Below, one piece after another: positions 10,062 to 28,140 of a stretch of DNA of 64,000 nt. The position numbers and the translations under genes are program-made. Each line of letters begins with the position of its first letter. Position 1 is the stretch's first letter. This DNA comes from Sphingomonas sp. LC-1 (GTDB lineage: Bacteria; Pseudomonadota; Alphaproteobacteria; Sphingomonadales; Sphingomonadaceae), in contig NZ_JANZXB010000006.1 of the NCBI RefSeq assembly GCF_025371035.1, positions 166,252 through 230,251 of the forward strand. The letters run 5' to 3'. The notes beneath the pieces are model-generated. The model was not told the origin of the DNA. It did not search any database and saw nothing but the letters and a program-made list of their open reading frames with translations.

Positions 10062-11162
10062 ATGATCTTCCCCCCCGCCACCTTTTCGCGGCTGATCGTC
10101 AAGGTCGGTTCCGCCCTTCTCGTCTCGCCCGAAGGCGAAGTGCGCCGCGACTGGCTGACCGGCCTGGTCGCCGACATCGCCGCGCGGGTCCGCGAGGGGC
10201 AGCAGATCGCGATCGTCTCTTCCGGGGCGATCGCACTCGGTGCCCGCCGCCTCGGCCTGCCCAAGGGCGGGCGCGCCAGCCTGGAGGATGCGCAGGCGGC
10301 CGCCGCGACCGGGCAGATCGCGCTGAGCCAATGTTGGGCCGAGCTGCTCCATGCCCAGGGGCTGACCGCCGCGCAGATGCTGGTGACGCTGGACGATCTG
10401 GAGGATCGCCGTCGCTATCTGAACGCCGCCGCGACGCTCGGGCGCTTGATGGGACTGGGCGTGGTGCCGGTCATCAACGAGAATGACAGCGTCGCGACCG
10501 AGGAAATCCGCTTCGGCGACAACGACCGGCTGGCGGCACGAGTGGGTCAGGCGGCGGGCGCGAACGGCGTACTGCTGCTGTCCGACGTGGACGGATTGTA
10601 CGATAGCAACCCGCACACCAATCCGCAGGCGCGCCATATCGAACGGGTCGATCGGATCGACGCGGTCAGCGGCATGGCCGATGGCGGCTCCGCCTCGGGG
10701 ATGGGTTCGGGTGGCATGGTGTCGAAGATCGCCGCCGCGCGCATCGCGGTCAGCGCGGGTGCGCATCTTGCCATCGCTTCGGGGCGGATCGACCATCCGC
10801 TGTCGACACCGGCGCGCCACACTTTGTTCGTCGCGGAAAGAAGCGCCCCCGCCCGCAAGGCGTGGCTGGCGGGCGGCCTGACTGCGCGGGGCGCGATCAG
10901 CGTCGATGCGGGCGCGGCCAAGGCGCTGGCCGAGGGCGGCAGCCTGCTCGCCGCCGGAGCCACCGCCGTTCAGGGCCATTTCGCGCGCGGCGACCTCGTC
11001 ACCGTCGAGGGGCCGAACGGCACCATCGCACGGGGCCTCAGCGAATATGACTCGACCGAGGCCCGCGCGCTGATCGGCACGCGGTCCGACGAGCAGGCCG
11101 CGATACTGGGCCATGCGCCGCGCGCCGCGCTGATCCATCGCAACCATCTGGCCCTGCTGTGA
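10062..11162 (+). CDS. proB: Glutamate 5-kinase
   Basis: The 366-residue enzyme phosphorylates L-glutamate with ATP, the first step of proline synthesis. The amino-acid-kinase domain shows LIVKVGSALL, IVSSGAIALGARRL, VINENDSVATEEIRFGDND and LLLSDVDGLY. A C-terminal PUA domain (about residues 275-366) contains RGAISVDAGAAKAL and RGDLVTVEGPNG. The start at 10062 gives the standard N-terminus. The gene is in the obgE-proB arrangement common in alphaproteobacteria, but proA is not adjacent. It overlaps the next gene by four bases (GTGA). Confidence 0.96.
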   Translation: MIFPPATFSRLIVKVGSALLVSPEGEVRRDWLTGLVADIAARVREGQQIAIVSSGAIALGARRLGLPKGGRASLEDAQAAAATGQIALSQCWAELLHAQGLTAAQMLVTLDDLEDRRRYLNAAATLGRLMGLGVVPVINENDSVATEEIRFGDNDRLAARVGQAAGANGVLLLSDVDGLYDSNPHTNPQARHIERVDRIDAVSGMADGGSASGMGSGGMVSKIAAARIAVSAGAHLAIASGRIDHPLSTPARHTLFVAERSAPARKAWLAGGLTARGAISVDAGAAKALAEGGSLLAAGATAVQGHFARGDLVTVEGPNGTIARGLSEYDSTEARALIGTRSDEQAAILGHAPRAALIHRNHLALL

Positions 11163-12055
11163 TCGTCGCGGTGACGGGAGCGACCGGCTTTGTCGGTCGC
11201 GCGGTGGTGGACCGTGCCGCCGGTTCCGGGCTGAGCCTGCGTGCGCTGACCCGGCGGGCCCAGCCGTCGCGCGCCGGGATCACCTGGATCGCGGGTGCGC
11301 TCGACAAGCCGGAGAGTCTTGCCACGCTGGTCGAGGGCGCGGACGCGGTGCTGCATATCGCAGGCGTGGTGAATGCACCCGATCGCGAGGGTTTCGCCGC
11401 GGGCAATGTCGATGGCACCCGCGCGATGGTCGAGGCGACGAAGGCTGCGGGCATCAAGCGCTTCGTCCATGTCTCCTCGCTGTCCGCCCGCGAGCCCGAA
11501 CTGTCCATCTATGGCTGGTCCAAGCGGCAGGCCGAGAATGAGGTGACGGAAAGCGGACTCGATTGGACGATCGTGCGGCCGAGCGGCATCTATGGCCCGC
11601 ACGATACCGAGTGGCTGGACGTATTCCGCACCGCCCGGCTGGGGCTGTCCTTCATGCCGCCGCCGGGCAAGCTCTCGCTGATCGCCGTCGAGGATTTCGC
11701 CCGCCTGTTGACCATATTGGTCGCCACCGATGGCCCGCGCGCCGCGCTGGAGGTGGACGACGGGCAGGTGCTGACCCATGCCGAACTGGCCTCCGCCATG
11801 GGTGCGGCGGTGGGGCGGCGCGTGATGACGCTCCACCTGCCCAAGGGCCTCTTGAATCTGGGCGCGAGGATCGATCGAAAGCTGCGCGGGCCGGGTGCCA
11901 AGCTGACCGCCGACCGCGTCGGTTATCTCTGCCATCCCGACTGGACCGCCGATCCCGCCAAGCGCCCTTCCCCCGAGCTTTGGCAACCCGCAATCGCGCT
12001 CTCCAAGGGGCTGGCCGACACGGCGCGGTGGTATCGCGCCAACGGCTTGCTATAG
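11159..12055 (+). CDS. cerR: NAD(P)-dependent epimerase/dehydratase family protein, probable ceramide reductase CerR
   Basis: The 298-residue protein is an atypical extended short-chain dehydrogenase. It has the nucleotide-binding GATGFVG motif at the N-terminus and SIYGWSKRQAEN, carrying the catalytic Tyr-x3-Lys. In Caulobacter a gene of this family next to acp and spt encodes CerR, which reduces the 3-keto group of the oxidised ceramide formed after N-acylation. The same order (this gene, acp, spt) is present here, which is the main reason for the call; the sequence alone would also allow an NDUFA9-like reductase. Translation starts at a GTG overlapping the proB stop, so expression is coupled to proline and Obg genes. 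Confidence 0.65.
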   Translation: MIVAVTGATGFVGRAVVDRAAGSGLSLRALTRRAQPSRAGITWIAGALDKPESLATLVEGADAVLHIAGVVNAPDREGFAAGNVDGTRAMVEATKAAGIKRFVHVSSLSAREPELSIYGWSKRQAENEVTESGLDWTIVRPSGIYGPHDTEWLDVFRTARLGLSFMPPPGKLSLIAVEDFARLLTILVATDGPRAALEVDDGQVLTHAELASAMGAAVGRRVMTLHLPKGLLNLGARIDRKLRGPGAKLTADRVGYLCHPDWTADPAKRPSPELWQPAIALSKGLADTARWYRANGLL

Positions 12056-12122
12056 CAGCACGATACACGCGGTCGAAAAGCCGCCGCATTTGGGTGCCAC
12101 TGGCCCCTTTGAAAGGATCATC

Positions 12123-12368
12123 ATGAGCGACCGCCAAGCCATTTTCGACACCGTCGCGGCCCAGATCGCCCCCTTCAACAAGAAGGGCGTGGCACTGACC
12201 GAGGCGACGACCTTCCAGGGCGACCTGGAGTGGGACAGCCTGACCGTGATGGATTTCGTCGCCGCGATCGAGGACGAGTTCGACATCATCATCACGATGA
12301 ACATGCAGGCAGAGATCGAGAATGTCGGTCAGCTCGTCGACGCGGTCGAAAAGCTGAAGCAAGCCTGA
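12123..12368 (+). CDS. Acyl carrier protein dedicated to serine palmitoyltransferase
   Basis: The 81-residue acidic protein has the phosphopantetheine attachment motif in LEWDSLTVMDFV (the Ser of DSL). Conserved helices follow (FVAAIEDEFDI, IENVGQLVDAVEKL). In sphingomonads and Caulobacter an ACP gene directly upstream of spt delivers the acyl chain to the enzyme, distinct from the AcpP of fatty-acid synthesis. The 29-base gap to spt and the 67-base gap behind the reductase support one operon. An AAGGATCATC box lies upstream of the ATG. Confidence 0.9.
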   Translation: MSDRQAIFDTVAAQIAPFNKKGVALTEATTFQGDLEWDSLTVMDFVAAIEDEFDIIITMNMQAEIENVGQLVDAVEKLKQA

Positions 12369-12397
12369 CCCCTACAGCGCCCGAGACGGACCCTCCC

Positions 12398-13660
12398 ATG
12401 ACCGAAGCCGCCGCCCAGTCCCATGCCCTTCCCGCCGACGCGCCCGAAATCGCGCCGGAACGCGACCTGCTCTCCAAGTTCGACGGCCTGATCGCCGAGC
12501 GGCAGAAGCTGCTCGACTCGGGCGTCACCGATCCCTTCGCGATCGTGATGGAACAGGTGAAGTCTCCCACCGAGGCGGTGATTCGGGGCAAGGACACGAT
12601 CCTGCTCGGCACCTATAATTATATGGGCATGACCTTCGACGCGGATGTGATCGCGGCGGGCAAGACGGCACTGGAGCAGTTCGGTTCTGGCACGAACGGC
12701 AGCCGGATGCTCAACGGCACCTTCCATGACCATATGGAAGTCGAACAGGCCCTGCGCGATTTCTACGGCACGACCGGCGCGATCGTCTTTTCGACCGGTT
12801 ACATGGCGAATCTGGGCATCATTTCGACGCTGGCGGGCAAGGGTGAATATGTCATCCTCGACGCAGACAGCCATGCCTCGATCTATGACGGCTGCCAGCA
12901 GGGCAATGCCGAGATCGTCCGCTTCCGCCACAATTCGGTCGAGGATCTCGACAAGCGGCTCGGCCGGCTTCCGAAGGAACCCGCCAAGCTGGTCGTGCTG
13001 GAGGGCGTCTATTCGATGCTGGGCGACATCGCCCCGCTGAAGGAGATGGTCGCCGTCGCCAAGAAGCATGGCGCGATGGTGCTGGTCGATGAGGCGCATT
13101 CGATGGGCTTTTTCGGCCCCAACGGGCGCGGCGTGTACGAGGCGCAAGGGCTGGAAGGCCAGGTCGATTTCGTCGTCGGCACCTTCTCCAAATCGGTCGG
13201 CACGGTCGGCGGCTTCGTCGTGTCCAACCATCCGAAGTTCGAGGCGGTGCGCCTGGCCTGCCGCCCCTATATCTTTACCGCCTCGCTGCCCCCCTCGGTG
13301 GTGGCGACCGCGACGACCTCAATCCGCAAGCTGATGACCGCGCATGAGAAGCGCGAGCGGCTCTGGTCGAACGCGCGCGCATTGCACGGCGGCTTGAAGG
13401 AAATGGGATTCAAGCTGGGCACCGAAAACTGCGACAGCGCGATCGTCGCGGTGATCCTGGACGATCAGGAACAGGCCGTCATCATGTGGCAGGCGCTGCT
13501 CGACGGCGGCCTTTACGTCAACATGGCGCGGCCGCCCGCGACTCCGGCGGGCACCTTCCTGCTGCGCTGCTCCATCTGCGCCGAGCATACGCCCGAACAG
13601 ATCGAGACGGTGCTGGGCATGTTCCGCACGGCGGGCCAGGCGGTCGGCGTCATCGCCTGA
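12398..13660 (+). CDS. spt: Serine palmitoyltransferase
   Basis: The 420-residue PLP enzyme of the alpha-oxoamine synthase family condenses L-serine with palmitoyl thioester to 3-ketodihydrosphingosine, the first step of sphingolipid synthesis. With the start at 12398 the length and key residues match the soluble Sphingomonas paucimobilis enzyme: H159 (stacks on PLP), D231 and H234 in VDEAHSMGF, the PLP lysine K265 in GTFSKSVGTVGG, and R378 in NMARPP. The N-terminal 45 residues are mobile in the family. It is cytosolic, probably membrane-associated, and forms one operon with the upstream acp and reductase genes. Confidence 0.97.
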   Translation: MTEAAAQSHALPADAPEIAPERDLLSKFDGLIAERQKLLDSGVTDPFAIVMEQVKSPTEAVIRGKDTILLGTYNYMGMTFDADVIAAGKTALEQFGSGTNGSRMLNGTFHDHMEVEQALRDFYGTTGAIVFSTGYMANLGIISTLAGKGEYVILDADSHASIYDGCQQGNAEIVRFRHNSVEDLDKRLGRLPKEPAKLVVLEGVYSMLGDIAPLKEMVAVAKKHGAMVLVDEAHSMGFFGPNGRGVYEAQGLEGQVDFVVGTFSKSVGTVGGFVVSNHPKFEAVRLACRPYIFTASLPPSVVATATTSIRKLMTAHEKRERLWSNARALHGGLKEMGFKLGTENCDSAIVAVILDDQEQAVIMWQALLDGGLYVNMARPPATPAGTFLLRCSICAEHTPEQIETVLGMFRTAGQAVGVIA

Positions 13661-13706
13661 TCGCCCCATCGCGCGCGGCTTTGCATTATCCGGCGGCTGG
13701 GATAGC

Positions 13707-15635
13707 GTGAACGCCGTGATCGAGCAGGACAATCTCGGAGGGGTCGGCCGCTGGTGGACCTTTGCGCTGATCGCGATGGCGTTGGCCGGTGCGGTGACGC
13801 TGGCCATGCTGATCGTAACGATGGGCAACGCCAATCGCGAGCGCGACCAGGCGTTGGAGCGTCAGCGGCACAGCTATGAGGTGATGATCCTGGCCCGCAC
13901 GCTGGCGGGGACGATCGCACGGTCCGAAGCGTCGCTGGGTCGCTATGTCATCTCGGGCGACAGCAAGCTGGGCCAGCTTTACGTCGACGAATGGAATCTG
14001 GCGCGCGCGCAACTTGAACGGCTGGACGTGCTGATCGAGGAGACGCACCAGCAGAAGCGCGTCGAGCAGCTTCGCAAGGCTTATGAGGCGCGGGGCGACG
14101 AATTGTCGTTGATCGCACTTTCGACCACCTATCACCGCAACCGGCAGGCCTATGGCCTTTATTACCAGGCGCGACAGGCCGACGCGCTGTTGCAGATCAA
14201 CCGCCTGCTCACCGCACTGATCGAGGGGGAGCGCGTTCTGCTGGATCAGCGGAGCACGGCGGCGCAGGAAACGGTGCTCCACGCCAACCGGATCGCCGGG
14301 GGGCTGGTGATCTTCGGGATTGCGCTGGCGTTGGGGGCGATGCTGCTCGGCTGGCTGATGTTCCGCACTGTGGGCGAGCGGGCGGAGGCCCGCGCCGAGG
14401 CTTGGACCGAACGCGCCCGCGCCGAGGAACTCGCTGCCGCCGTCGATGCCGCGACCGAGGAACTGAAGGTGCAGGAAGCCAAGCTGCGCCAGGTGCAGAA
14501 GATGGACGCGCTGGGCCAGCTGACCGGCGGGATCGCGCATGATTTCAACAATATGCTGGCGGTCGTGCTGGGTGGATTGGAACTGGCACGCCGGGCCGAG
14601 GGGCGCGAGTCGGTGATCCGCCACCTCGAAAGCGCGACCGAGGGCGCGCATCGCGCCGCCGCGCTGACCCGCCGCCTGCTGATGTTCAGCCGTGAAGAGG
14701 CATTGACCCCTGAATGGCTCGCCCCGCGCCAGTTGGTGAGCGGCATGCGCGACCTGCTCGACCGCACGCTGGGCGATGGGGTGAAGGTGACGGTCGAGGA
14801 CACCACCACCGGCTGGACGATGTTCGGCGACCGGGTGCAGGTCGAAAACGCCATCCTCAATCTGGCGGTCAATGCACGCGATGCGATGGACGGGCGGGGC
14901 GAACTGACCATCCGCACCGCAGAGGTCCGGGTGGACGCCGATGCCCTGCCGCGGGCGGGGACGGGCGACTATGTCGTCCTGTCGGTGACCGACACCGGCG
15001 CGGGCATGACCCCCGAAGTGGCCGAGCGCGTCTTCGAGCCCTTTTTTACCACCAAGCCGGCGGGCAAGGGAACCGGCCTGGGGCTCAGCCAGATTTTCGG
15101 GCTGGTCGGCCAGATGGGGGGCGACGTCGCCATCCGCACGGCGCCGGGGGCCGGAACCACGGTCAGCCTCTATCTTCCTCGCCATTTCGAGACACACGCC
15201 CCCAAAGCGGAAGAAGCGCCCGCCGCCCTTCCCGAGGTGCCGGCGCTGGAAGGCTTGCGGATGCTGGTGGTGGAGGACGATCCGCGCGTGCTCGCCGCGA
15301 CGATGGGGGCGCTGCGCGAACTCGGCCATGATCCGGTCGCCTGTGGCGACCCGCGCGAGGCGGAAGAGCTGCTCGCCCGACATCCGGGCATTCGCCTGAT
15401 CGTGTCGGATGTGCTGATGCCGCATATGACCGGTCCGGAAATGATCGCCGCCCTCCGCCCCGCCCATCCCGGCATCGCGGTGCTGTTCGTCACCGGCTTT
15501 GCGGGCGAGACGCAGGCCACCGGGTTCGAGGGGCATGAGGTGTTGCGCAAGCCCTTCACGCTGGCCGGACTGGAGCGCGCTTTGGCGGCGGCGTTGAAGC
15601 GGGTGGCGTCGGGGCCTGTCTCGGCGGCGGCTTGA
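13707..15635 (+). CDS. Membrane hybrid sensor histidine kinase
   Basis: The 642-residue protein has two membrane segments (about residues 12-34 and 195-220) flanking a helical periplasmic domain of CHASE3 type, a short coiled coil, and a HisKA domain with the phosphoacceptor His278 in GGIAHDFNNMLAVV. A HATPase_c domain follows (NAILNLAVNARDAM, DTGAGM, GKGTGLGLSQIFG). A C-terminal receiver has its phosphoaspartate at 568 in VSDVLMPHMTGPE. The start is a GTG, 46 bases after spt on the same strand, so it may read through from the sphingolipid operon. The output regulator is not nearby. The ligand is unknown; a lipid or envelope cue is only a guess from position. Confidence 0.88.
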   Translation: MNAVIEQDNLGGVGRWWTFALIAMALAGAVTLAMLIVTMGNANRERDQALERQRHSYEVMILARTLAGTIARSEASLGRYVISGDSKLGQLYVDEWNLARAQLERLDVLIEETHQQKRVEQLRKAYEARGDELSLIALSTTYHRNRQAYGLYYQARQADALLQINRLLTALIEGERVLLDQRSTAAQETVLHANRIAGGLVIFGIALALGAMLLGWLMFRTVGERAEARAEAWTERARAEELAAAVDAATEELKVQEAKLRQVQKMDALGQLTGGIAHDFNNMLAVVLGGLELARRAEGRESVIRHLESATEGAHRAAALTRRLLMFSREEALTPEWLAPRQLVSGMRDLLDRTLGDGVKVTVEDTTTGWTMFGDRVQVENAILNLAVNARDAMDGRGELTIRTAEVRVDADALPRAGTGDYVVLSVTDTGAGMTPEVAERVFEPFFTTKPAGKGTGLGLSQIFGLVGQMGGDVAIRTAPGAGTTVSLYLPRHFETHAPKAEEAPAALPEVPALEGLRMLVVEDDPRVLAATMGALRELGHDPVACGDPREAEELLARHPGIRLIVSDVLMPHMTGPEMIAALRPAHPGIAVLFVTGFAGETQATGFEGHEVLRKPFTLAGLERALAAALKRVASGPVSAAA

Positions 15636-15774
15636 AGCGGCAGTTCGGGCGAAGGCCATGGGCGTTGCGCGGAAAACCCAAAGCCCAAAGGAGGGGGTGA
15701 CGCGCCCCGCCCCGCCCCGTATAGCCATGGCCGTTTTATCGCGCGAGTGATGTTCCCCGCATGAAGTCCCCCGC

Positions 15775-16974
15775 ATGAAGTCGATCGATCGCTACATGGC
15801 CCGGCTGATCGCGTTGCCCTTGTTCGCGACGCTGCTCATCTCGGCGATGCTGCTGGTGCTCGATCGCATCCGCCGCCTGTTCGAATTCGTCGCGACCGAG
15901 GGCGGGCCGATCAGCGTGGTGTGGCGGATGCTCGCCAACCTCCTGCCCGAATATCTGGGGCTGGGCATTCCGATCGGGTTGATGCTGGGCATATTGCTCG
16001 CCTTTCGCCGCCTCGCCACCTCGTCCGAACTGGACGTGATGCGCGGCGTCGGCATGAGCTATACCCGGCTGCTGCGCGTCCCCTATATGTACGCCATCAT
16101 ATTGGCGGCCCTCAACCTCGCCATCGTCGGCTATATCCAGCCGATCGCGCGCTATTATTATGAAGGGCTGCGCTACGAGTTGCGCACCGGGGCGCTGGGG
16201 GCGTCGATCAAGGTCGGCGAATTCACCCATCTGGGCGACCGCATGACGCTGCGCATCGAAGAAAGCCGCGACAATGGCCGCGACCTGTCGGGCATCTTCG
16301 TCCACGCCAACACGTCCAAGGGCGACTGGATCGGCGTGACCGCGGAGCGCGGGCGCTTCCTGGCGACCGACGATCCCAATGTCATCATCTTCCGCCTGAC
16401 CAACGGCACGCTGATCCACAACCGGCCGGAATTCCGTGCGCCGCGCGTCCTGACCTTCTCCAGCCATGACCTGCCGATCGACCTGCCCAAGTTCGACAAT
16501 TTCCGGCAGCGCGGCGGCCGCGACCTGGAATTCACGCTGCCCGAACTCGCGCGGCACGGCCAAGAGGCGCAGAGTGCGGAGGCGCGTGCGGGAAGCCGTG
16601 CCGAATTCCACTTCCGCGTGGTGGAAGTGGTGACGATGTTCCTGTTGCCGCTGCTCGCGGTCTCGTTGGGCATCCCGCCCAAGCGATCGACTTCGGCGCT
16701 GGGCGTGTTCCTGTCGATCGTCATGCTCGTCACCTATTTCAAGGTGAATCAATATGCCGCCGACATCGGCGCACTGGGGCGGGTGAATCCCGCGCTCGCC
16801 TTGTGGGGGCCGTTCACGGTCTTCGCGGGACTCGTTCTCTGGATGTATTATGTCACTGCCTATGTGCCGGGCGGCCAGCCGATCGGCGCGCTGGAGCGTG
16901 GCGTGGCGAAGCTGGCCAAGGCCATAGGCCGCTGGCTGCCGGGCCGTCGCCGCAAGAAGGGGCAGACGGCATGA
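15775..16974 (+). CDS. lptF: LPS export ABC transporter permease LptF
   Basis: The 399-residue inner-membrane protein belongs to the YjgP/YjgQ family. It has six membrane segments, three near the N-terminus (from about residue 10, SIDRYMARLIALPLFATLLI) and three near the C-terminus, around a periplasmic beta-jellyroll domain (about residues 130-270). LptF and LptG form the permease that extracts LPS for transport to the outer membrane. The order lptF then lptG with a four-base overlap is standard. In sphingomonads, whose outer leaflet is rich in glycosphingolipid, the natural cargo could differ; the sequence does not settle this. Confidence 0.9.
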   Translation: MKSIDRYMARLIALPLFATLLISAMLLVLDRIRRLFEFVATEGGPISVVWRMLANLLPEYLGLGIPIGLMLGILLAFRRLATSSELDVMRGVGMSYTRLLRVPYMYAIILAALNLAIVGYIQPIARYYYEGLRYELRTGALGASIKVGEFTHLGDRMTLRIEESRDNGRDLSGIFVHANTSKGDWIGVTAERGRFLATDDPNVIIFRLTNGTLIHNRPEFRAPRVLTFSSHDLPIDLPKFDNFRQRGGRDLEFTLPELARHGQEAQSAEARAGSRAEFHFRVVEVVTMFLLPLLAVSLGIPPKRSTSALGVFLSIVMLVTYFKVNQYAADIGALGRVNPALALWGPFTVFAGLVLWMYYVTAYVPGGQPIGALERGVAKLAKAIGRWLPGRRRKKGQTA

Positions 16975-18068
16975 GCCTGTCCAACATCTTCCCGTCGCGG
17001 ACGATCGCCATCTACATGGCGAAGATGTTCCTGATCCGCACCTTCGCCATTCTGTTCGCGGTGGCGCTGGTGCTCCAGACGCTTGACGTGCTGAGCGAGT
17101 CCGGCGCGGTGCTGGCCGCGCCCGGCAACGGGCAGGCGCAGGTATGGCGCTATGTCTCGCTGCGCGCGCCGCAGATCATATCCTTCCTGCTGCCCTTCTC
17201 GGTGCTGCTGGGTACGATCCTGACCTTCTTCACGATGAACCAGAATTCGGAGGTCATCGCGCTGAAGGCAGCGGGCATGTCGGCGCATCAGGTGCTGGCG
17301 CCGCTGCTGGTCGCCAGCGCGGGCGTCGCGGTGCTGAGCTTCGCGTTCAACGACCGGATCGTCCCGCGCGCCACCGCGACGCTGAGCGCCTGGCAGAAGG
17401 TCGAATATGGACCGCTGCCCATCGATAGCGGCGACCGGGCCAATGTCTGGGTACGCGACGGCGACGACCTGATTTCGGTCGACCTGATCCAGGGGCGCGG
17501 CGACAGGACGCAATTGGGCGGCGTGACGCTTTACGATCGCAGCGGCGGCAATTTGCGGGCGATCGTCCGCGCGCCGCGGGGACAGCGGGACGGAGCCGGC
17601 TGGCGGATCGGCCCGGCCACCCGGTTCGAGGTGGCGTCGGGCAAGCTGACCAATATTCCCTCGCTGGTCATCGGCCAGGGCGTGACGCCCGAGCAACTGA
17701 CCCTGGCCAGCGTCAACGCCGACAGCCTATCCTTCGGCGCCTTGTCTGGCGCGATCGATGATCTGCGCGAGGCGGGCCGTCCGACCAAGTCGCTGGAGGG
17801 TTCGCTCTGGCACAAGCTGTCCGCGCCGATGTCGGCGGTGCTGATGCCGCTGCTGGGCGCGGTCGCCGCCTTCGGCATCGCGCGGTCGGGCAAGCTGTTC
17901 GTTCGCGCCGTGATCGGGATGGCGCTGGGCTTCGCCTATTTCGTGGCGGACAATTTCTCGATGGCGATGGGCGATCTGGGGGCTTATCCGCCCTTCCTCG
18001 CGGCCTGGGCGCCGATCCTGCTCTTCTTCCTGATCGGTGAGGCGGTGCTGTTTCGCACTGAGGAATAA
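16971..18068 (+). CDS. lptG: LPS export ABC transporter permease LptG
   Basis: The 365-residue protein is the LptG partner. It begins IAIYMAKMFLIRTFAILFAV, contains LPFSVLLGTILTFFTMNQNS and ELTLASVNADSL-like jellyroll segments, and ends with three membrane helices after SLEGSLWHKLSAPM. The coupling helix region NQNSEVIALKAAGMS is the part expected to contact the LptB ATPase, which is not in this window. The ATG overlaps the lptF stop, which implies translational coupling and a 1:1 complex. No terminator follows; the next gene is convergent. Confidence 0.9.
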   Translation: MSLSNIFPSRTIAIYMAKMFLIRTFAILFAVALVLQTLDVLSESGAVLAAPGNGQAQVWRYVSLRAPQIISFLLPFSVLLGTILTFFTMNQNSEVIALKAAGMSAHQVLAPLLVASAGVAVLSFAFNDRIVPRATATLSAWQKVEYGPLPIDSGDRANVWVRDGDDLISVDLIQGRGDRTQLGGVTLYDRSGGNLRAIVRAPRGQRDGAGWRIGPATRFEVASGKLTNIPSLVIGQGVTPEQLTLASVNADSLSFGALSGAIDDLREAGRPTKSLEGSLWHKLSAPMSAVLMPLLGAVAAFGIARSGKLFVRAVIGMALGFAYFVADNFSMAMGDLGAYPPFLAAWAPILLFFLIGEAVLFRTEE

Positions 18069-18259
18069 GGCGGGCCCCGCCCGTCCTGCCTCCTACCTCC
18101 GTTCGCGCTGCGCGAAATCGAAGCGCACAGGCCATTATGGCGGCCTGCGTGCGGCTTCCTTGGGCTTTCGCCTTCGCTCAGGCTGAACAGGCAGCAGGGC
18201 CGATCGTCACGCCGGACGAAGTCGAGGCGCGTGCCCCGCCTTCGTCCGATGCAGGGAAA

Positions 18260-19354
18260 TCACTTCCCCCGACGAAGGGTGCTCATGCCGATCTTGGCAA
18301 CCAGCCCCGGCAGCCCGCTATAGCTCGCCTTGTGATAAGGCGAATCCGGGGTCAGCGCCGCGCTGATCCGGCGATGTGCCTCGCCTAGCGCATGATAGGG
18401 CAGCGACGGCAGCAGATGGTGCAGCGCGTGATAGCGCAGGCCCACGGGCGCCCACAGCCCCGGCAACAGAGCCGGGGGCGGCACATTGACCGAGTCGAGA
18501 TATTGCGCGGTCACCGTCATCTGCTCGCCCTCATTCTCCCACAAATGGGCGACGAGCGTGCGGACCTGGTTCAGCACCGCGACCGCCGAACCGATGGCGA
18601 ATCCGATCGCGAAGCCGCGCAGCGAAATGATGCCGACCGCCACCATCACGACCAGAGCCACCGCCCAGATCGAGGCGGCCGCATCGGTGCGGTTGAAACG
18701 CACCAGCGCTTCGCCCTCGGGCATGCGACGGCGGAACTGCGGGTTGATCGCCAGCGCCGAATAACGCTCGACCACCATCTTGCGCAGCCCCGGAACCACC
18801 CAAGACAAAGGCGACAGGATCGCAAAGCGGATCAGCAGCCCCAGCGGCGCCAGTGCCGACACCAGGATGAAGACCGGCAGCGTCCACGGCTTCATCAGCG
18901 CGAGCGGCAGATATTCGGGATCGTCGACCGTGCCATAGCGGGTCTTCGCATGGTGAAGGTTATGCACCCCCTCATACATAAAGGCGGGGGTCAGCAGCGG
19001 CACACCGACCAGCGCGTTCCAGCCCTCGCGGAAACGCGGCAGCGCCGAATGCTTCATATGGCTGACTTCGTGGATGAACAGCAGCGCGCGATAGAGAGCC
19101 AGCACCGCGACCACCGACGCGACGACGATCACTCCGGTCGAGGATGCCGTCACCGCCACGGCCAGTGCGGCATAGCCGAGCAGCGCACTGCCCGCCATGT
19201 CGGCCCAATAGAGGCGCGGATTTGGCGCGATCAGGTCGCGCGTCAGTTCGGCGGCGGCGCGCAGCATTGCCTTGTCGTCCGCGATCGGCAGGCGCGCACC
19301 GGGCATGGTGCCGGCGGCCGAGGCGCCGCGCTCGAAAGAAAGGGTCGATTCCAT
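18260..19354 (-). CDS. Fatty acid desaturase family membrane protein
   Basis: The 364-residue protein carries the three histidine clusters of membrane di-iron desaturases and hydroxylases: HEVSHMKHS, GVHNLHHAKTR and YHALHHLLPSLPYH, with hydrophobic helices between them. These enzymes use O2 to desaturate or hydroxylate acyl chains at the membrane. Substrate and position cannot be read from sequence. Location beside sphingolipid genes makes an acyl or long-chain-base modification attractive, but a glycerolipid substrate is equally possible. I chose the ATG at 19354 because AAAGGA lies seven bases upstream; frames open further upstream add unlikely sequence. Confidence 0.8.
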   Translation of the reverse strand: MESTLSFERGASAAGTMPGARLPIADDKAMLRAAAELTRDLIAPNPRLYWADMAGSALLGYAALAVAVTASSTGVIVVASVVAVLALYRALLFIHEVSHMKHSALPRFREGWNALVGVPLLTPAFMYEGVHNLHHAKTRYGTVDDPEYLPLALMKPWTLPVFILVSALAPLGLLIRFAILSPLSWVVPGLRKMVVERYSALAINPQFRRRMPEGEALVRFNRTDAAASIWAVALVVMVAVGIISLRGFAIGFAIGSAVAVLNQVRTLVAHLWENEGEQMTVTAQYLDSVNVPPPALLPGLWAPVGLRYHALHHLLPSLPYHALGEAHRRISAALTPDSPYHKASYSGLPGLVAKIGMSTLRRGK

Positions 19355-19488
19355 GGGCATATCCTTTGCCCCCATATAGTGGCGACACGGTGGCATTCCC
19401 ACGGCGGGCGATGACGATATCCTCACTCGCTATGATCGACCAAGCCGGTTAGGTACGAGGGCGAAATCATACGCTGGACCGATCCCAC

Positions 19489-20640
19489 ATGACCCTTTCC
19501 ATCCGCCCCATAGCGTCCAAGCGCGACCGCAAGACCTTTGTGGACTTCCCGTTCGGCCTCTACGCGGACGATCCGCATTGGGTGCCGCCGCTCAAGGGCG
19601 AAGCGCTGGGGCTGATCACGCCGGAAAAGAATGGCTGGTACAGCCATGCCAAGGCGCAGCTTTTCCTGGCGGAAGAGAATGGCAAGGTGGTCGGGCGCAT
19701 TTCGGCACATCTCGATATGCTGGCGCTGGAGATGGACGTGTCCAAGGGGTTCGGACCGGGCACGGGTTTCTGGGGACTGATGGATGCGACGCGCGAGGAG
19801 GTGTTCCGCGCGCTGCTGTCGGCGGCCGAGGGGTGGCTGCGCGAACAGGGCATGACACGCGCGATCGGTCCGGTGTCGCAATCGGTGTGGGAGGAGCCGG
19901 GCCTGCTGGTCCAGGGGTTCGACCAGGACCCGACGATCATGATGGGCCATGCCCGGCCGGAATATCAGGGCTGGATCGAGGCGGCGGGTTATACCACCAT
20001 CAAGCAGCTCTTCACCTATGAGCTGGACATCACGCAGGAATTCCCGCCGATCGTCCAGCGGATCATCAAGTCGGGCGAGAAGAACGAGCGCATCCGCGTG
20101 CGCGAGGTGAACAAGGCCAAGTTCGAGGAGGAGGCCGCGATCATCCTCAGCATCCTGAACGACGCATGGTCGGACAATTGGGGCTTCATCCCGCTCACGC
20201 CGCCGGAAATCAAGGACGTTGGCGTCAAGCTGAAGCCGATCGTGTTCAACGACCTGATCCGCATCGCCGAACTGGACGGCAAGCCGGTGGCGTTCATGAT
20301 CACGCTTCCCGACCTCAACGAGGCGATCAAGCCGCTCAAGGGCAGCCTGCTCCCCTTCGGCTGGGCCAGGCTGCTGCTGTGGCTGCGCGCGCCCAAGGTA
20401 CGGACGATGCGCGTGCCGTTGATGGGGGTGGTGAAGGAGCTTCAATCGTCGCGCATGGCGAGCCAGCTGGCCTTCATGATGATCGAATATATCCGCCGCG
20501 CCTCGGTCACCAAATATGGCGCGTCGCGGGGTGAGATCGGCTGGATCCTCGACGACAATCAGGGGATGCGCTCGATCGCCGAGACCATCAAGAGCGACGT
20601 GAACAAGACCTATAACATCTACGCCCGCGATCTGGGCTGA
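19489..20640 (+). CDS. Large GNAT-fold acyltransferase, candidate bacterial ceramide synthase
   Basis: The 383-residue protein is twice the size of an ordinary GNAT enzyme. It opens with RPIASKRDRKTFVDFPFGLY and DDPHWVPPLKGEALGLITPE, then NGKVVGRISAHLD, GFWGLMDA and a C-terminal acyl-CoA-binding-like half (PFGWARLLLWLRAPKVRTMR). Members are usually labelled N-acetyltransferase and occur near spt. In Caulobacter the bacterial ceramide synthase bCerS is an acyl-CoA N-acyltransferase-superfamily protein encoded close to spt. Position, size and family make this the best ceramide synthase candidate here, acylating 3-ketosphinganine before CerR acts. This is inference; no motif proves it. A hairpin terminator follows at once. 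Confidence 0.6.
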   Translation: MTLSIRPIASKRDRKTFVDFPFGLYADDPHWVPPLKGEALGLITPEKNGWYSHAKAQLFLAEENGKVVGRISAHLDMLALEMDVSKGFGPGTGFWGLMDATREEVFRALLSAAEGWLREQGMTRAIGPVSQSVWEEPGLLVQGFDQDPTIMMGHARPEYQGWIEAAGYTTIKQLFTYELDITQEFPPIVQRIIKSGEKNERIRVREVNKAKFEEEAAIILSILNDAWSDNWGFIPLTPPEIKDVGVKLKPIVFNDLIRIAELDGKPVAFMITLPDLNEAIKPLKGSLLPFGWARLLLWLRAPKVRTMRVPLMGVVKELQSSRMASQLAFMMIEYIRRASVTKYGASRGEIGWILDDNQGMRSIAETIKSDVNKTYNIYARDLG

Positions 20641-21240: not shown

Positions 21241-21766
21241 GGTAGTAACTCCCTGAATGCCGGATCACCCCGGCATGTGAGTTACTGCATTAGTTGTGCC
21301 ATACACTGAAAAAGCCGGATTTCAGCCACTTAGCTGATTCCCACATAGGACGATCCGCCAAGCTGTAGTGTTTTTCGCCAAGTGATCCGGGAAATTTTGC
21401 TACGCTGCGCCGTCGAGGCCATACACGTCGCCGCGCTGGGCGCTCAAGCTTTTCGCGTAAGCAGATAAATCGCGGGGTAGTAGGATGGGCAAGTTGCATC
21501 GCCCTATCTTACTACATATTACAAATAGATATCCCCACGCTCCCGTCATTTCTAAGCCGAGCATAAATCATCCTCCCTATATTTATCATAAGGACGAGAA
21601 TCGACAGCTTGATAGCTAAATGCAAATTGCGACATATCCGTGCATATAGGATGACATATTCGTTGCGTTATTGAGAAATCTCGTAGGCGACACGGCTCCT
21701 GTCGTGAAATTGTCACGGGTCGCTGCGAACAGGGATGGGATCGCCGCACTACGGGATGCCCATTCG
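21241..21766. other. AT-rich intergenic region with an inverted repeat
   Basis: This 526-base stretch is visibly AT-richer than the flanking genes and holds no supported gene. An inverted repeat at 21477-21515 pairs GTAGTAGGATGGGC with GCCCTATCTTACTAC around a 10-base loop. It is not followed by a T-run. It could be a weak terminator, an operator or the stem of a small RNA. The promoter of the methyltransferase gene probably lies downstream of it. Confidence 0.5.
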
Positions 21767-22432
21767 ATGGCAACGCAGATGAGTACCGCCAGCGTCACCA
21801 AGGCCTATGATCGCTGGTCACCAGTTTACGACCTGGTCTTCGGCCCCGTCTTCAGGAAAGGCCGCTCCGCCGCGATCGTCGCCGCCGAGCGGATCGGCGG
21901 GCGGATCATCGAGGTCGGCGTCGGCACCGGCATTTCCCTGCCCCAATATTCCCGCGACAACCGCATCGTCGGTGTCGATTTGTCCGAGCCCATGCTCGAC
22001 AAGGCACGCGAACGGGTGAAGCGCGGCAACCTGGCCCATGTCGAACAGATTGCTTACGGCGATGCCGAGGCGCTGCAATTCGCCGACAACAGCTTCGACG
22101 TGGTGGTCGCGCAATATGTTATCACCGCGGTCCCCAATCCGGAACGCGCGCTCGACGAATTCGCTCGCATCTGCCGCCCCGGCGGCGAGATCGTCATCAC
22201 GACGCGGGTAGGCGCGGGCGATGGGCTTCGCGGTCGCATCGAAAAGACGCTGATGCCGATCACCAGTCGCCTGGGCTTCCGCACCGATTTCCCGTTCCAC
22301 CGCTATACCGACTGGGCGGCAACGCGCGGCGACGTGGAACTGGTCGAAAGCCGCCCGCTGCCCCCGCTCGGCCATTTCTCGCTGGTCCGCTTCGCCAAGC
22401 GTCAGCCTTCCCTCCAAGGACATGTCCAATGA
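21767..22432 (+). CDS. Class I SAM-dependent methyltransferase, probable phospholipid N-methyltransferase
   Basis: The 221-residue protein has the Rossmann methyltransferase core: motif I IIEVGVGTGISLPQY, acidic strand-2 end RIVGVDLSEPML, motif II/III DNSFDVVVAQYVITAVPNPE and RICRPGGEIVI. The opening YDRWSPVYDLVFGPVFRKGR is typical of the alphaproteobacterial PmtA group, which methylates phosphatidylethanolamine towards phosphatidylcholine. A psd gene about 2.5 kb away supports a lipid substrate, but methyl-dimethyl specificity is unknown. ATG 21767 or 21779 may be used; the frame is open further upstream. It overlaps the following gene by four bases. Confidence 0.7.
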   Translation: MATQMSTASVTKAYDRWSPVYDLVFGPVFRKGRSAAIVAAERIGGRIIEVGVGTGISLPQYSRDNRIVGVDLSEPMLDKARERVKRGNLAHVEQIAYGDAEALQFADNSFDVVVAQYVITAVPNPERALDEFARICRPGGEIVITTRVGAGDGLRGRIEKTLMPITSRLGFRTDFPFHRYTDWAATRGDVELVESRPLPPLGHFSLVRFAKRQPSLQGHVQ

Positions 22433-23052
22433 CGGGTTTTCGCACGCAGCTCGCCGAACAGCGGTGGGACGATCATCGTTATTATCATCACAGCCTGGTC
22501 AATCAGAGCCTGCACTTCGTCAGCGCCTGCACCTTCCTGACCGCCTATGTCCTCTTGTTCATCGACCCGGCGGTCGCCAGCCTATTGGCCTGGGGCGTGG
22601 CGATGACCAGCCGCCAGGCCGGACATTTCTTCTTCGAGCCCAAGGGCTATGACCATGTGAACAAGGCGACGCATGAGCATAAGGAAGAGATCAAGGTCGG
22701 CTACAACCTGGCGCGCAAATATGTGCTGATGGGCATCTGGGGCGCGATCCCGCTGGTGCTGCTGGTCCAGCCGACCCTGTTCGGGACGCTGGAATATCCG
22801 GACGGCTTCATGGGCTATTTGCGCCATGTCGGCATCGGCTGGCTGGGCCTGGGCGTCAGCGCGATCATCGTGCGGGTCATGCAACTCTGGGTCGCCCGCG
22901 ATCTGGAAACGGGCCTCGTCTGGGCGACCAAGATCGTCACCGACCCGTTCAACGACTTCAAGATGTACAAGAGCGCACCGCGCCGCCTGATGAAGGGCGA
23001 GCGGATGGATCATCACGATGTCGATGATTTCGAGGATTTGAGGGCGGCGTAA
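22429..23052 (+). CDS. Mpo1-like (DUF962-type) membrane protein
   Basis: The 207-residue protein has several membrane helices and the pattern YYHHSLVNQSLHFVSACTF followed by RQAGHFFFEPKGYDHVN and HEHKEEIKVGYNLARKYV. The arrangement YHH-x3-N-x3-H and GH-x2-FE is like that of yeast Mpo1 (DUF962/PF06127), an Fe(II) dioxygenase that shortens 2-hydroxy fatty acids released from sphingolipids. Sphingomonad sphingolipids carry 2-hydroxy acyl chains, so such an enzyme would fit, but the match is by motif spacing only. It is co-translated with the methyltransferase gene (ATGA overlap). A strong double hairpin follows. Confidence 0.5.
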   Translation: MTGFRTQLAEQRWDDHRYYHHSLVNQSLHFVSACTFLTAYVLLFIDPAVASLLAWGVAMTSRQAGHFFFEPKGYDHVNKATHEHKEEIKVGYNLARKYVLMGIWGAIPLVLLVQPTLFGTLEYPDGFMGYLRHVGIGWLGLGVSAIIVRVMQLWVARDLETGLVWATKIVTDPFNDFKMYKSAPRRLMKGERMDHHDVDDFEDLRAA

Positions 23053-24887: not shown

Positions 24888-24925
24888 GCGGTCTTTGACC
24901 GCGTACCCATGACGGAGGCATGACA

Positions 24926-25786
24926 ATGCGCGGACCCATCATGCGGTTCTTCCTGAACGAGGACATCAATTTCCTCGTCACCAATCGCCTGCCCCGCCGC
25001 TTCGCCACGCAATTGGTCGGCCGAATCGCGCGGATCGAGCATCCGCTGGTGGCGAAGCCCAGCCTGGCGCTGTGGAAATTCTTTGCAGGCGTCGACCTGT
25101 CGGATGCGCGGACGAGGCGGTTCAAATCGTTGCGCGACGGCTTCGTCCGCCCTTTACGCGACGGCGCGCGCGCGTTCGATACCGATCCCGACACACTCGC
25201 CTCGCCTTGCGATGCGTTGGTCGGCGCGCATGGCCGGATCGAGGACGATCGACTCTATCAGATCAAGGGCTTTCCCTATCGCCTGGGCGATCTGGTTCCC
25301 GACCCCGAACTGGTCGAGCGGTTCCGCGACGGCTCGTTCGTCACGCTGCGGCTGACCGCGGGCATGTATCACCGCTTCCATGCCCCGACCGACATGGCGG
25401 TGGAGGGGGTGACCTATCTCTCCGGCGACTGCTGGAACGTGAACCCGATCGCGCTCAAGCGGGTGGAACGGCTTTTCTGCCGCAACGAACGCGCGGTGAT
25501 CGAGGCGCGAACGCTGGTCTCGGGGCGGCCGCTGCTGATCGTCCCGGTCGCCGCGATCCTGGTGGCGAGCATCCGCCTCCATTGCCTGGATACCGAACGC
25601 AGCCTGCGCGAACATGGCCCGGGCCGCCGCCCCTGCGCCGCGCGGATCGGCAAGGGTGAGGAGATGGGCTGGTTCGAACATGGTTCGACCATCATCCTGT
25701 TCCTGCCCCCGGACATGCGGCTGGCGGACACTCTGGTCGAGGGACAAGCGATCCGCGCAGGCACGGTGATCGGGCGAACGGCCTGA
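24926..25786 (+). CDS. psd: Phosphatidylserine decarboxylase (Psd type)
   Basis: The 286-residue protein fits the phosphatidylserine decarboxylase proenzyme family, which makes phosphatidylethanolamine using a pyruvoyl cofactor produced by self-cleavage. The cleavage motif is GWFEHGSTIILF; with the start at 24926 the serine is residue 254. Other conserved parts are GRIEDDRLYQIKGFPY, FVTLRLTAGMYHRFHAP and VTYLSGDCWNVNP. The motif is HGST rather than LGST, a common variant. GGAGG lies seven bases before this ATG, which decides between several starts. It probably associates with the inner membrane. Confidence 0.88.
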   Translation: MRGPIMRFFLNEDINFLVTNRLPRRFATQLVGRIARIEHPLVAKPSLALWKFFAGVDLSDARTRRFKSLRDGFVRPLRDGARAFDTDPDTLASPCDALVGAHGRIEDDRLYQIKGFPYRLGDLVPDPELVERFRDGSFVTLRLTAGMYHRFHAPTDMAVEGVTYLSGDCWNVNPIALKRVERLFCRNERAVIEARTLVSGRPLLIVPVAAILVASIRLHCLDTERSLREHGPGRRPCAARIGKGEEMGWFEHGSTIILFLPPDMRLADTLVEGQAIRAGTVIGRTA

Positions 25787-26916: not shown

Positions 26917-28140
26917 ATGGGCAAGCTGACAGCCCTATCAGTCAGGAACGCGAGGCCGGGACGCCATGCCGATGGCCAGGGCCTGTACCTGCTCGTCAAG
27001 CCGACTGGCGCGAAGTCCTGGCTGCTCCGCGTGCAGGTCGACAGGCAGCGACGGGATATTGGTCTAGGCTCTGTCGACACCTCCAGCCGCGTTGGAGCGG
27101 ATCGCAGCACCCCTCCCCCGATCGCCATCCCAATCCTGCATAAGAAGGTCCTGACGCTGAGCGAGGCGCGGGAAAAGGCCGGGCTGCTGCGCACGGCCGC
27201 CAAGTCCGGGCTCGACCCGATAGCCGAGCGCGACCGTGAGCGGCGTAAGGCACCGACGTTCGAGGAAGCAGCGAAGGCAACGCACGAGGCGCTGAAGAGC
27301 GGTTGGGCTGAAAACACCGCCACCCTCTTCCTCAGCACCTTGGCCAATCATGCCTATCCCACCCTTGGCAAGATGCGCGTGGACCAGATCGATGCCGAGC
27401 ACATCCGGGATGCGGTTGCGCCCATCTGGACCAGCAAGCCGGAAATGGCGCGCAAGGTGAGGTTTCGAATCAGCAAGGTGCTGGACTTCGCGAAGTCGAA
27501 GGGCTGGCGGAAGAGCGAGGCACCACGCCGGTCCGTGACCGTTGGCTTGGCCAAGCAGGCGGATGGCGGGAATTATGCCGCCATGCCTTATGAGCAGGTG
27601 CCTGCGCTGGTCGCGCAGCTGAATGCCGGGGCTGCCACCAAGGGGCGCCAGGCACTGTTGCTTGCAATCCTGACGGCAGCACGATCGGGGGAAGTTCGGT
27701 CGGCACGGCGCAAGCATTTCGACCTCGACAAGGCAGAGTGGAACCGGCCGCCCGAGGTAATGAAGACTCGGATCGCGCACACCGTCACGCTGAGCAAGCC
27801 AGCGGTCGCGCTGCTGAAGCAGATATTCGAGGAAGGCGGTCACGAGCCCGACGACCTCGTCTTCCCCAACCGTAAAGGTGAGCAGCTTTCCGATATGACG
27901 TTGAGCAAGGCCCTGCGGGACGCGCGACACGCCTATACCGTGCACGGCTTCCGCAGCTCGTTCCGGGACTGGGCAGCCGAAAAGATGCCCGAGGTGCCTG
28001 ATGCGGTTGCCGAAGCCGCGCTGGCTCACGTCGTGCCGGACAAGGTGATCCGCGCGTATAAGCGTGCCAAGTTTCTCGACATGCGGCGTGGACTACTGGA
28101 GGTTTGGGGTAGCTACATTTTTTCGGGCATCAATCAATGA
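26917..28140 (+). CDS. int: P4-type tyrosine integrase
   Basis: The 407-residue protein starts with the DUF4102 arm-binding domain (KLTALSVRNARPGRHADGQG and WLLRVQVDRQRRDIGLGS). A SAM-like core-binding domain and the catalytic domain follow. Visible catalytic residues are Arg in LTAARSGEVR, HxxR in YTVHGFRSSFRDWAAE, His in ALAHVVPDKV and the Tyr in IRAYKRAK. Such integrases insert islands and prophages at tRNA or tmRNA ends. GAGGGAGAAC precedes the ATG. No attachment repeat or tRNA was found just upstream, so the left boundary remains open. The preceding promoter carries an SOS box. A four-base overlap couples it to the next gene. Confidence 0.92.
   Translation: MGKLTALSVRNARPGRHADGQGLYLLVKPTGAKSWLLRVQVDRQRRDIGLGSVDTSSRVGADRSTPPPIAIPILHKKVLTLSEAREKAGLLRTAAKSGLDPIAERDRERRKAPTFEEAAKATHEALKSGWAENTATLFLSTLANHAYPTLGKMRVDQIDAEHIRDAVAPIWTSKPEMARKVRFRISKVLDFAKSKGWRKSEAPRRSVTVGLAKQADGGNYAAMPYEQVPALVAQLNAGAATKGRQALLLAILTAARSGEVRSARRKHFDLDKAEWNRPPEVMKTRIAHTVTLSKPAVALLKQIFEEGGHEPDDLVFPNRKGEQLSDMTLSKALRDARHAYTVHGFRSSFRDWAAEKMPEVPDAVAEAALAHVVPDKVIRAYKRAKFLDMRRGLLEVWGSYIFSGINQ

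What the first reader, a model, noticed from the sequence alone, without database searches (positions are those of the whole stretch)
11159..20640. A near-complete ceramide pathway around spt, with LptFG and a hybrid kinase in the middle
Seen: a CerR-type reductase, a dedicated ACP and spt in one operon, then a hybrid histidine kinase, lptF-lptG, a desaturase and a 383-residue GNAT-fold protein. Known: in Caulobacter, ceramide synthesis needs spt, a GNAT-superfamily ceramide synthase and the CerR reductase. Inferred: the large GNAT protein is the ceramide synthase, and the kinase and LptFG belong functionally to the locus, for example in sensing or exporting sphingolipid.
Basis: partly seen in the sequence, partly recalled or inferred. 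Interest (0 to 1): 0.7.

Follow-up and report, generated by a model that had tools for sequence, protein, structure and literature searches.

The report
Sphingolipid synthesis genes with dedicated exporter
This bacterium appears to make no lipopolysaccharide, and beside its ceramide-making genes sits its only copy of two membrane parts of the lipopolysaccharide exporter; they belong to a sister type that elsewhere also lies beside ceramide genes, which suggests that the export machine was re-fitted to carry sphingolipid.

Summary
The locus has cerR, an acyl carrier protein, spt, lptF-lptG, a desaturase-family gene and a 383-aa orthologue of the Caulobacter ceramide synthase (about 40% identical, same gene order in named Caulobacter). 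aasR is not in the window. The kinase is not a conserved part: about 11 of 30 spt loci of its family, none of 19 from other families. The strong result is lptFG, the only copy in a 99.99% complete genome without LpxC that keeps LptA, B, C and D. In 193 alphaproteobacteria, four or more LptF/G genes occur in 11 of 13 genomes with CerS and LpxC, 0 of 19 with CerS alone and 1 of 161 without CerS; but 5 of 118 LpxC-less genomes of the order also have four or five. By phylogeny the window's pair is of the spt/cerS-linked type, and at the ancestral pepA-lptFG-lptD site lptFG is gone. LptG position 40, which binds a lipid A phosphate in Shigella, is basic in canonical pairs and rarely here. Best reading: the Lpt bridge was kept and its LptFG replaced by a sphingolipid type. 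A 2024 paper proposed this role for Caulobacter; transport is untested.

The parts
11159..12055 (+). cerR: NAD-binding SDR, ceramide reductase orthologue, 298 aa, overlaps proB by 4 bp
   Evidence: Pfam NAD_binding_10 / Epimerase; 35-38% identical to the gene before acpR-spt in three Caulobacter strains
12123..12368 (+). acpR: dedicated acyl carrier protein
   Evidence: PF00550; acpR match beside spt in 30 of 30 spt loci of the family
12398..13660 (+). spt: serine palmitoyltransferase
   Evidence: NF047603 832 bits; 905 bits to PDB 2jg2
13707..15635 (+). hybrid histidine kinase (CHASE3-HisKA-HATPase-receiver); neighbour, probably not a core part
   Evidence: linkage in about 11 of 30 spt loci
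15775..16974 (+). lptF of the spt/cerS-linked type; only LptF in the genome; Arg31 and Arg304 set it apart from canonical alphaproteobacterial LptF
16971..18068 (+). lptG of the spt/cerS-linked type; only LptG in the genome; Gly45-Ala46 where canonical alphaproteobacterial pairs mostly have Arg-Arg (E. coli Lys40-Lys41)
18260..19357 (-). fatty acid desaturase-family gene; candidate ceramide acyl hydroxylase (inference)
   Evidence: PF00487; between lptG and cerS in 19 of 22 fetched loci of the family that hold both
19489..20640 (+). cerS: bacterial ceramide synthase orthologue, 383 aa

Best explanation
The locus makes ceramide and supplies the inner-membrane permease that exports the finished sphingolipid. 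Spt condenses serine with an acyl chain carried on AcpR, CerS adds the amide-linked acyl chain, CerR reduces the keto group; the desaturase-family enzyme probably hydroxylates the amide-linked chain. LptF-LptG, powered by LptB and continued by LptC-LptA-LptD encoded elsewhere, take the sphingolipid from the inner membrane across the bridge to the outer membrane, the place LPS holds in other Gram-negatives. This LptFG is a second type. Ancestors had both types, as several alphaproteobacteria still do; when lipid A synthesis was lost the canonical pair at pepA-lptFG-lptD was lost too, while LptA/B/C/D stayed and now serve the other pair. Shown here: gene content, absence of LpxC, single LptFG, its phylogenetic type, the emptied ancestral site, type-specific residues. 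Inferred: the substrate, the history, and the function of each enzyme by orthology.
For: Only two PF03739 genes in the genome, both here. LpxC in 0 of 118 genomes of the order, with E. coli and Caulobacter controls positive, while CerS is in 112, spt in 112 (E <= 1e-110) and LptF/G in 109 of the same 118. Own genome: lptC-lptA-lptB-rpoN and pepA|lptD-surA-pdxA-ksgA, confirmed by Pfam. Class level, 193 genomes (cross-tabulated by me; Fisher tests): four or more LptF/G genes in 11 of 13 CerS+LpxC+ genomes, 0 of 19 CerS+LpxC- and 1 of 161 CerS-. Tree of 61 pairs: one branch (SH-aLRT 100) parts 19 canonical-site pairs from 42 of the other type, which include all 31 pairs taken from LPS-less genomes; LptF alone 97, LptG alone 100; setting the pairs of two-pair genomes apart from those of LPS-less genomes is rejected, AU p 3.5e-8. 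11 of 12 named pairs (Caulobacter, Phenylobacterium, Roseomonas, Roseospira, Hydrocarboniphaga, Ramlibacter and others) fall in the same clade. pepA stands beside lptD without lptFG in 8 of 14 LPS-less LptD loci, own included; none of the 14 has LptFG beside lptD. E. coli K-12 itself has pepA|lptF-lptG. LptG position 40 basic in 17 of 19 canonical and 2 of 52 of the other type, rows not used before 17 of 18 and 2 of 66; in Shigella K40 binds the 4'-phosphate of LPS (PMC6744409, passages). Extra LptF/G genes of two LPS-less genomes, G013 and G019, are nearest to the spt/cerS type, not the canonical one.
Against: In the order, where LpxC was found in none, 5 of 118 genomes have four or five LptF/G genes (G003, G058, G064, G079, G093) and 8 have three; only two of these 13 were looked at, so the copy-number rule is not strict. 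G164 (one contig, 100% complete) has cerS, spt, acpR and cerR, no LpxC, and no LptF/G or LptA/LptD match, so Lpt is not needed by every sphingolipid maker. G173 has spt and cerS with only a canonical pair. G131 has four LptF/G genes without CerS. The spt-linked pair of G296 and the pair in an Acidocella lie outside both clades. LptG K40E/K41E did not affect growth in the authors' assay (PMC5548808, passages), so the signature may be a marker rather than the cause. LptG 41 is a weak marker (basic in 15 of 66 new rows), and E. coli LptF itself has the basic residues at 30 and 292 that mark the spt/cerS type among alphaproteobacteria. At LptG K34 and R136, whose charge reversal is lethal in E. 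coli, both alphaproteobacterial types differ from E. coli.
Confidence: 0.75

Rival explanations
1. The Lpt machine here is a general exporter of outer-membrane lipid; the type difference and the linkage reflect common ancestry and operon inertia, not substrate choice.
For: G173 has spt and cerS and only a canonical pair; K40E/K41E was silent in E. coli; E. coli LptF shares two of the marker residues.
Against: Genomes with both lipids keep two pairs in 11 of 13 cases; in LPS-less genomes the pair found is of the spt/cerS type in 31 of 31 loci tested in the first tree.
Confidence: 0.13
2. LptFG here exports another surface glycolipid or a polysaccharide-lipid, and lies next to ceramide genes because envelope genes cluster.
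For: No transport was measured; the substrate is inferred.
Against: The link to cerS is tighter than that of spt to cerS: 95 of 101 against 79 of 109 genomes, and lptFG-cerS neighbours recur in named alpha-, beta- and gammaproteobacteria.
Confidence: 0.08
3. The hybrid kinase senses sphingolipid or envelope state and regulates this locus.
For: It lies between spt and lptF in the window and follows spt in about 11 of 30 loci of the family. A kinase match also lies near cerS in one Caulobacter MAG (L266), without spt in that stretch.
Against: Missing beside spt in most loci of the family and in all 19 spt-bearing stretches from other families of the order.
Confidence: 0.12
4. The 383-aa protein is a GNAT-like enzyme other than ceramide synthase.
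For: About 40% identity to the Caulobacter protein; weak Pfam GNAT score.
Against: Single copy in the genome, same position after lptFG as in named Caulobacter, 33 invariant columns over 40 sequences, co-occurrence with spt over the order.
Confidence: 0.03

Closest known systems
Caulobacter crescentus sphingolipid region CC_1168-CC_1152 (PMC11324152)
   Same: cerR-acpR-spt, lptF2-lptG2 and cerS together; the authors suggest that LptF2, LptG2 and LptC2 transport phosphosphingolipid
   Different: Caulobacter has LPS and, by that paper, second versions of LptF and LptG; here LpxC and the canonical pair are gone, only a kinase lies between spt and lptF, and aasR is not nearby
Canonical LPS exporter LptB2FGCAD (E. 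coli, Shigella)
   Same: LptA, B, C, D, F and G are all encoded in the genome
   Different: LptFG is of another clade and place and lacks the basic pair at E. coli LptG 40-41
Sphingomonas wittichii and Zymomonas mobilis orthologues (PMC11324152, section 9)
   Same: reported to hold most of the Caulobacter gene products
   Different: reported there as scattered over the genome; loss of canonical lptFG is not mentioned in the passages and section read

Membership tests
bacterial ceramide synthase (bCerS, CC_1154) | homology over the full length to the Caulobacter protein | tested here: met
   39.8-40.3% identity over 381-384 aa to three named Caulobacter strains; the C. crescentus record itself was not fetched
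bacterial ceramide synthase (bCerS, CC_1154) | GNAT superfamily | tested here: inconclusive
   PF00583 below cut-off in the window protein, above it in two of three relatives; no model available
bacterial ceramide synthase (bCerS, CC_1154) | acyltransferase activity on the sphingoid base | not testable with these tools
   needs a deletion strain or enzyme assay
CerR ceramide reductase | NAD-binding SDR beside acpR-spt | tested here: met
alphaproteobacterial serine palmitoyltransferase | curated NCBIfam score over cut-off | tested here: met
   832 bits against 670
five-gene ceramide set of Caulobacter | aasR present in the locus | tested here: not met
   no credible match in the window; the rest of the genome was not searched for it
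LptF/LptG | curated scores over cut-off | tested here: met
canonical LPS-export LptFG | lies in the canonical (pepA-lptFG-lptD) clade | tested here: not met
canonical LPS-export LptFG | genome makes lipid A | tested here: not met
   LpxC absent; other lpx genes not searched
spt/cerS-linked LptFG (LptF2/LptG2 type) | same clade as the cerS-linked pairs of Caulobacter | tested here: met
spt/cerS-linked LptFG (LptF2/LptG2 type) | transports sphingolipid | not testable with these tools
   suggested, not tested, in PMC11324152

The most novel reading that the evidence does not exclude
LPS was replaced by sphingolipid several times in alphaproteobacteria, each time by the same swap: the LPS-type LptFG was deleted from its ancient pepA-lptD site, and the shared LptB/C/A/D bridge was left to a sphingolipid-type LptFG whose gate residues choose the cargo. 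The outer-membrane lipid is then set by one exchangeable permease pair.
Probability: 0.5. Interest if true: 0.78.

Novelty: new variant of a known kind. Interest (0 to 1): 0.63.

Why it matters
A 2024 paper states that it is not known how sphingolipids get from the inner to the outer membrane (PMC11324152, introduction passage). Here comparative genomics points to the permease, shows that in the window's LpxC-less genome it is the only one, and gives residues to test. If true, Lpt is a general lipid bridge whose cargo is set by an exchangeable LptFG pair; inhibitors of canonical LptFG might then not act on sphingomonads (inference).

Tried and rejected
Tried without result: structure of CerS (switched off); PDB sequence search with CerS and with its profile (chance-level matches only). 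Considered and rejected: that the canonical LptFG simply moved to the cerS locus; that the kinase belongs to the locus; that LptG position 41 marks the type.

Literature: searches; I saw listings, and of papers: PMC11324152 passages and section 9, PMC11087976 abstract, outline and discussion, PMC6744409 and PMC5548808 passages, PMC13028669 and PMC3087551 passages (no mention of Lpt genes in the first, none of sphingomonads or sphingolipid in the second for the terms asked). None listed the loss of canonical lptFG in LPS-less sphingolipid makers. Subscription papers and preprints are not held; PMC9393093 was not available.

Limits of the counts: the curated cut-off of NF047603 is passed by 36 of 118 genomes only, and the E. 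coli control also rings at the threshold used, so E <= 1e-110 alone does not prove an spt; all but one of the 112 best matches score 498 bits or more. CerS was counted at E <= 0.001 and E <= 1e-15. Of the 27 LpxC- genomes, seven were not printed and are deduced from their absence among the positives. Five of G134's and some of G284's LptF/G matches are contig fragments. G140, one of the two CerS+LpxC+ genomes with two matches, has them on separate contigs. One search covered 39 genomes with PF03968; several matched only once, so a missing LptA or LptD there is not evidence of absence. LptD loci were fetched for 14 of the 19 CerS+LpxC- genomes. Rows dropped: loci without exactly two full LptF/G frames were left out of the trees (among those fetched for the purpose L126, L127, L128, L191, and some named loci); the G296 and Acidocella pairs were left out of the residue counts. 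In the first tree 29 of the 31 LPS-less loci come from genomes with exactly two LptF/G genes; G019 has three and G003 four. Trees are quick searches with SH-aLRT, without bootstrap.

Full report
What is there. The window lies at G000:C45:166252-230251 of a 4.15-Mb genome, 99.99% complete. The order on the plus strand is obgE-proB-cerR-acpR-spt-kinase, then lptF-lptG, a desaturase-family gene on the minus strand, and cerS. cerR overlaps proB by 4 bp and lptG overlaps lptF by 4 bp. Spt aligns over 419 residues, nearly identical, with PDB 2jg2 (905 bits; I recall that entry as the Sphingomonas paucimobilis enzyme). An AMP-binding enzyme, the probable aasR, lies just before cerR in two named loci (L286 and L297; Pfam on L297) but has no credible match in the window.

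The 383-residue protein. It is single copy at E <= 1. Pfam gives a sub-threshold GNAT score; two of three relatives pass. It is 39.8-40.3% identical over its length to the cerS of Caulobacter sp. Root343, C. sp. 32-67-35 and C. endophyticus. In Root343 and 32-67-35 the order is cerR-acpR-spt-...-lptF-lptG-cerS, that of CC_1164-1163-1162-...-1156-1155-1154 in PMC11324152 (passages; section 9). It is therefore taken as the bCerS orthologue; activity is inferred. The 2024 JBC paper (abstract; discussion) places Spt and bCerS in the cytoplasm and CerR in the periplasm.

The kinase. One search examined 30 of the 35 spt loci found in the window's family (window included): 12 have a match to the kinase within 1.5 kb, one of them (L045) only to the receiver domain. 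Of 20 stretches fetched from other families of the order, 19 hold spt and none has the kinase. Weak matches away from spt occur in L124, L155 and L159 and one near cerS in a Caulobacter MAG, L266. It is an occasional neighbour.

LptFG: copy number and lipid A. The genome has two PF03739 genes, both in this locus. In 118 genomes of the order: CerS 112, spt 112, LptF/G 109, LpxC 0; the LpxC control rings in E. coli and Caulobacter. The window's genome has lptC-lptA-lptB-rpoN at L121 and pepA|lptD-surA-pdxA-ksgA at L120. So the bridge is there without the committed enzyme of lipid A synthesis (that LpxC is the committed enzyme: established knowledge).

Class-wide pattern. In 193 alphaproteobacterial genomes at least 95% complete: CerS in 32, LptF/G in 186, LpxC in 166. 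Cross-tabulated by me: CerS+LpxC+ 13, CerS+LpxC- 19, CerS-LpxC- 8, CerS-LpxC+ 153. Four or more LptF/G genes: 11 of 13, 0 of 19, and 1 of 161 CerS- genomes (G131). Fisher p 6e-7 for 11/13 against 0/19, 4.8e-12 for CerS against LpxC absence; relatedness is not corrected for. The rule is not strict: in the order sample, all LpxC-less, 5 of 118 genomes have four or five LptF/G genes and 8 have three. Of these 13 I could place the extra genes of two only: in G013 the pair on another contig is of the spt/cerS type (45-47% identical to it, 25-27% to canonical), and in G019 the third gene is a lone LptF-like one nearest the same type at 29%. In two families (codes f26 and f75) one sampled genome has LpxC without CerS and another CerS without LpxC, which hints at repeated loss; no species tree was made.

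Phylogeny. LptF and LptG of 61 loci, aligned and concatenated: one branch with SH-aLRT 100 separates 19 pairs at the canonical site from 42 others: all 31 taken from LPS-less genomes, 10 from genomes with LpxC and two pairs (nine linked to spt or cerS in the stretch, L151 alone on a short contig) and one of G301 without spt or cerS in its stretch. LptF alone 97, LptG alone 100; holding the pairs of two-pair genomes apart from the rest is rejected (AU p 3.5e-8). With E. coli and 12 named loci added, 11 of the 12 named fall in the same clade (52 rows, 100); the 19 canonical rows remain together (100); the pair of G296 and that of an Acidocella form a third lineage outside both.

The emptied site. 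In LPS-bearing genomes the canonical pair stands with pepA divergently upstream and lptD-surA downstream: of the 19 loci, pepA within 0.5 kb in 13 and within 6 kb in 17, lptD next in 16 (my count); of 20 further loci from CerS- genomes, pepA in 17 and lptD in 16. E. coli K-12 also has pepA|lptF-lptG. In the window's genome pepA and lptD are 55 bp apart as reading frames, with no lptFG. Of 13 other LPS-less genomes, 7 show the same pepA|lptD without lptFG, and none has lptFG beside lptD.

Linkage. From coordinates (one LptF/G row a genome): cerS and lptFG lie within 10 kb in 95 of 101 genomes with both, that is in all 95 that have them on one contig; cerS and spt within 20 kb in 79 of 109; spt and lptFG within 15 kb in 77 of 100. 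Six genomes with LptF/G were not in the printed rows and are not counted. In sphingomonads where spt has moved away (for example L103, L104, L177-L180) lptF-lptG-desaturase-cerS stays together.

Residues. In Shigella LptB2FG, LptG K40 and LptF K317 bind the 4'-phosphate of LPS, LptG K41 the inner core, LptG K34 and LptF R33 (with others) the 1'-phosphate (PMC6744409, passages). At LptG 40, 17 of 19 canonical alphaproteobacterial pairs are basic against 2 of 52 of the other type; at LptF 30, 0 of 19 against 52 of 52; at LptF 292, 1 of 19 against 51 of 52. On rows not used to find this: 17 of 18 against 2 of 66, 0 of 18 against 60 of 66, and 1 of 18 against 66 of 66. LptG 41 is weaker (16 of 18 against 15 of 66). 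The window has Gly45-Ala46 in LptG and Arg31 and Arg304 in LptF. Against a causal role: E. coli LptF has Lys30 and Arg292, so those two positions part the types only among alphaproteobacteria; K40E/K41E was tolerated in the assay of PMC5548808 (passages); at LptG K34 and R136 both alphaproteobacterial types depart from E. coli.

Exceptions. G164 has the ceramide genes and neither LpxC nor any Lpt match. G173 has ceramide genes and only a canonical pair. G158, G161 and G217 have LptF/G without LpxC or CerS.

Novelty. That LptF2/LptG2 of Caulobacter may transport sphingolipid was suggested in 2024, so the idea is not new. Not found in the searches listed under Tried and rejected: that the sphingomonad pair is of this type, that it is the only pair left in such a genome, that the canonical pair vanished from its ancient site, the class-wide copy-number pattern, and the residue signature. 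Transport itself is untested.

Noticed in passing
L119 (genome G164): A one-contig, 100% complete genome with cerR-acpR-spt-cerS but no LpxC, LptF/G, LptA or LptD match: a sphingolipid maker with no recognisable Lpt machine.
   Followed up: partly
L149 and L228: The spt-linked LptFG of G296 and the pair in an Acidocella form a third LptFG lineage outside both main clades.
   Followed up: partly
genomes G003, G058, G064, G079, G093: LpxC-less genomes of the order with four or five LptF/G genes; places of the extra genes were not printed.
   Followed up: no
L133, L141, L150: In three two-pair genomes lptD is not next to the canonical lptFG-surA; in G245 an LptD lies on another contig (L219).
   Followed up: partly
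window 21671-22432, 24920-25786: A PmtA-like phospholipid methyltransferase and a phosphatidylserine decarboxylase family gene lie a few kb past cerS; among L102-L201 the first had a match in L127 only.
   Followed up: partly
window 22429-23052: 207-aa protein without NCBIfam match; from memory it resembles the DUF962/Mpo1 family (2-hydroxy fatty acid oxidation). Not tested: the Pfam call failed and was not repeated.
   Followed up: no
window 26917-28140: A phage-type integrase reading frame (judged by eye) begins about 6 kb past cerS; possible edge of a mobile element.
   Followed up: no
genomes G158, G161, G217: LptF/G kept without LpxC and without CerS: either a missed LpxC or yet another lipid.
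   Followed up: no
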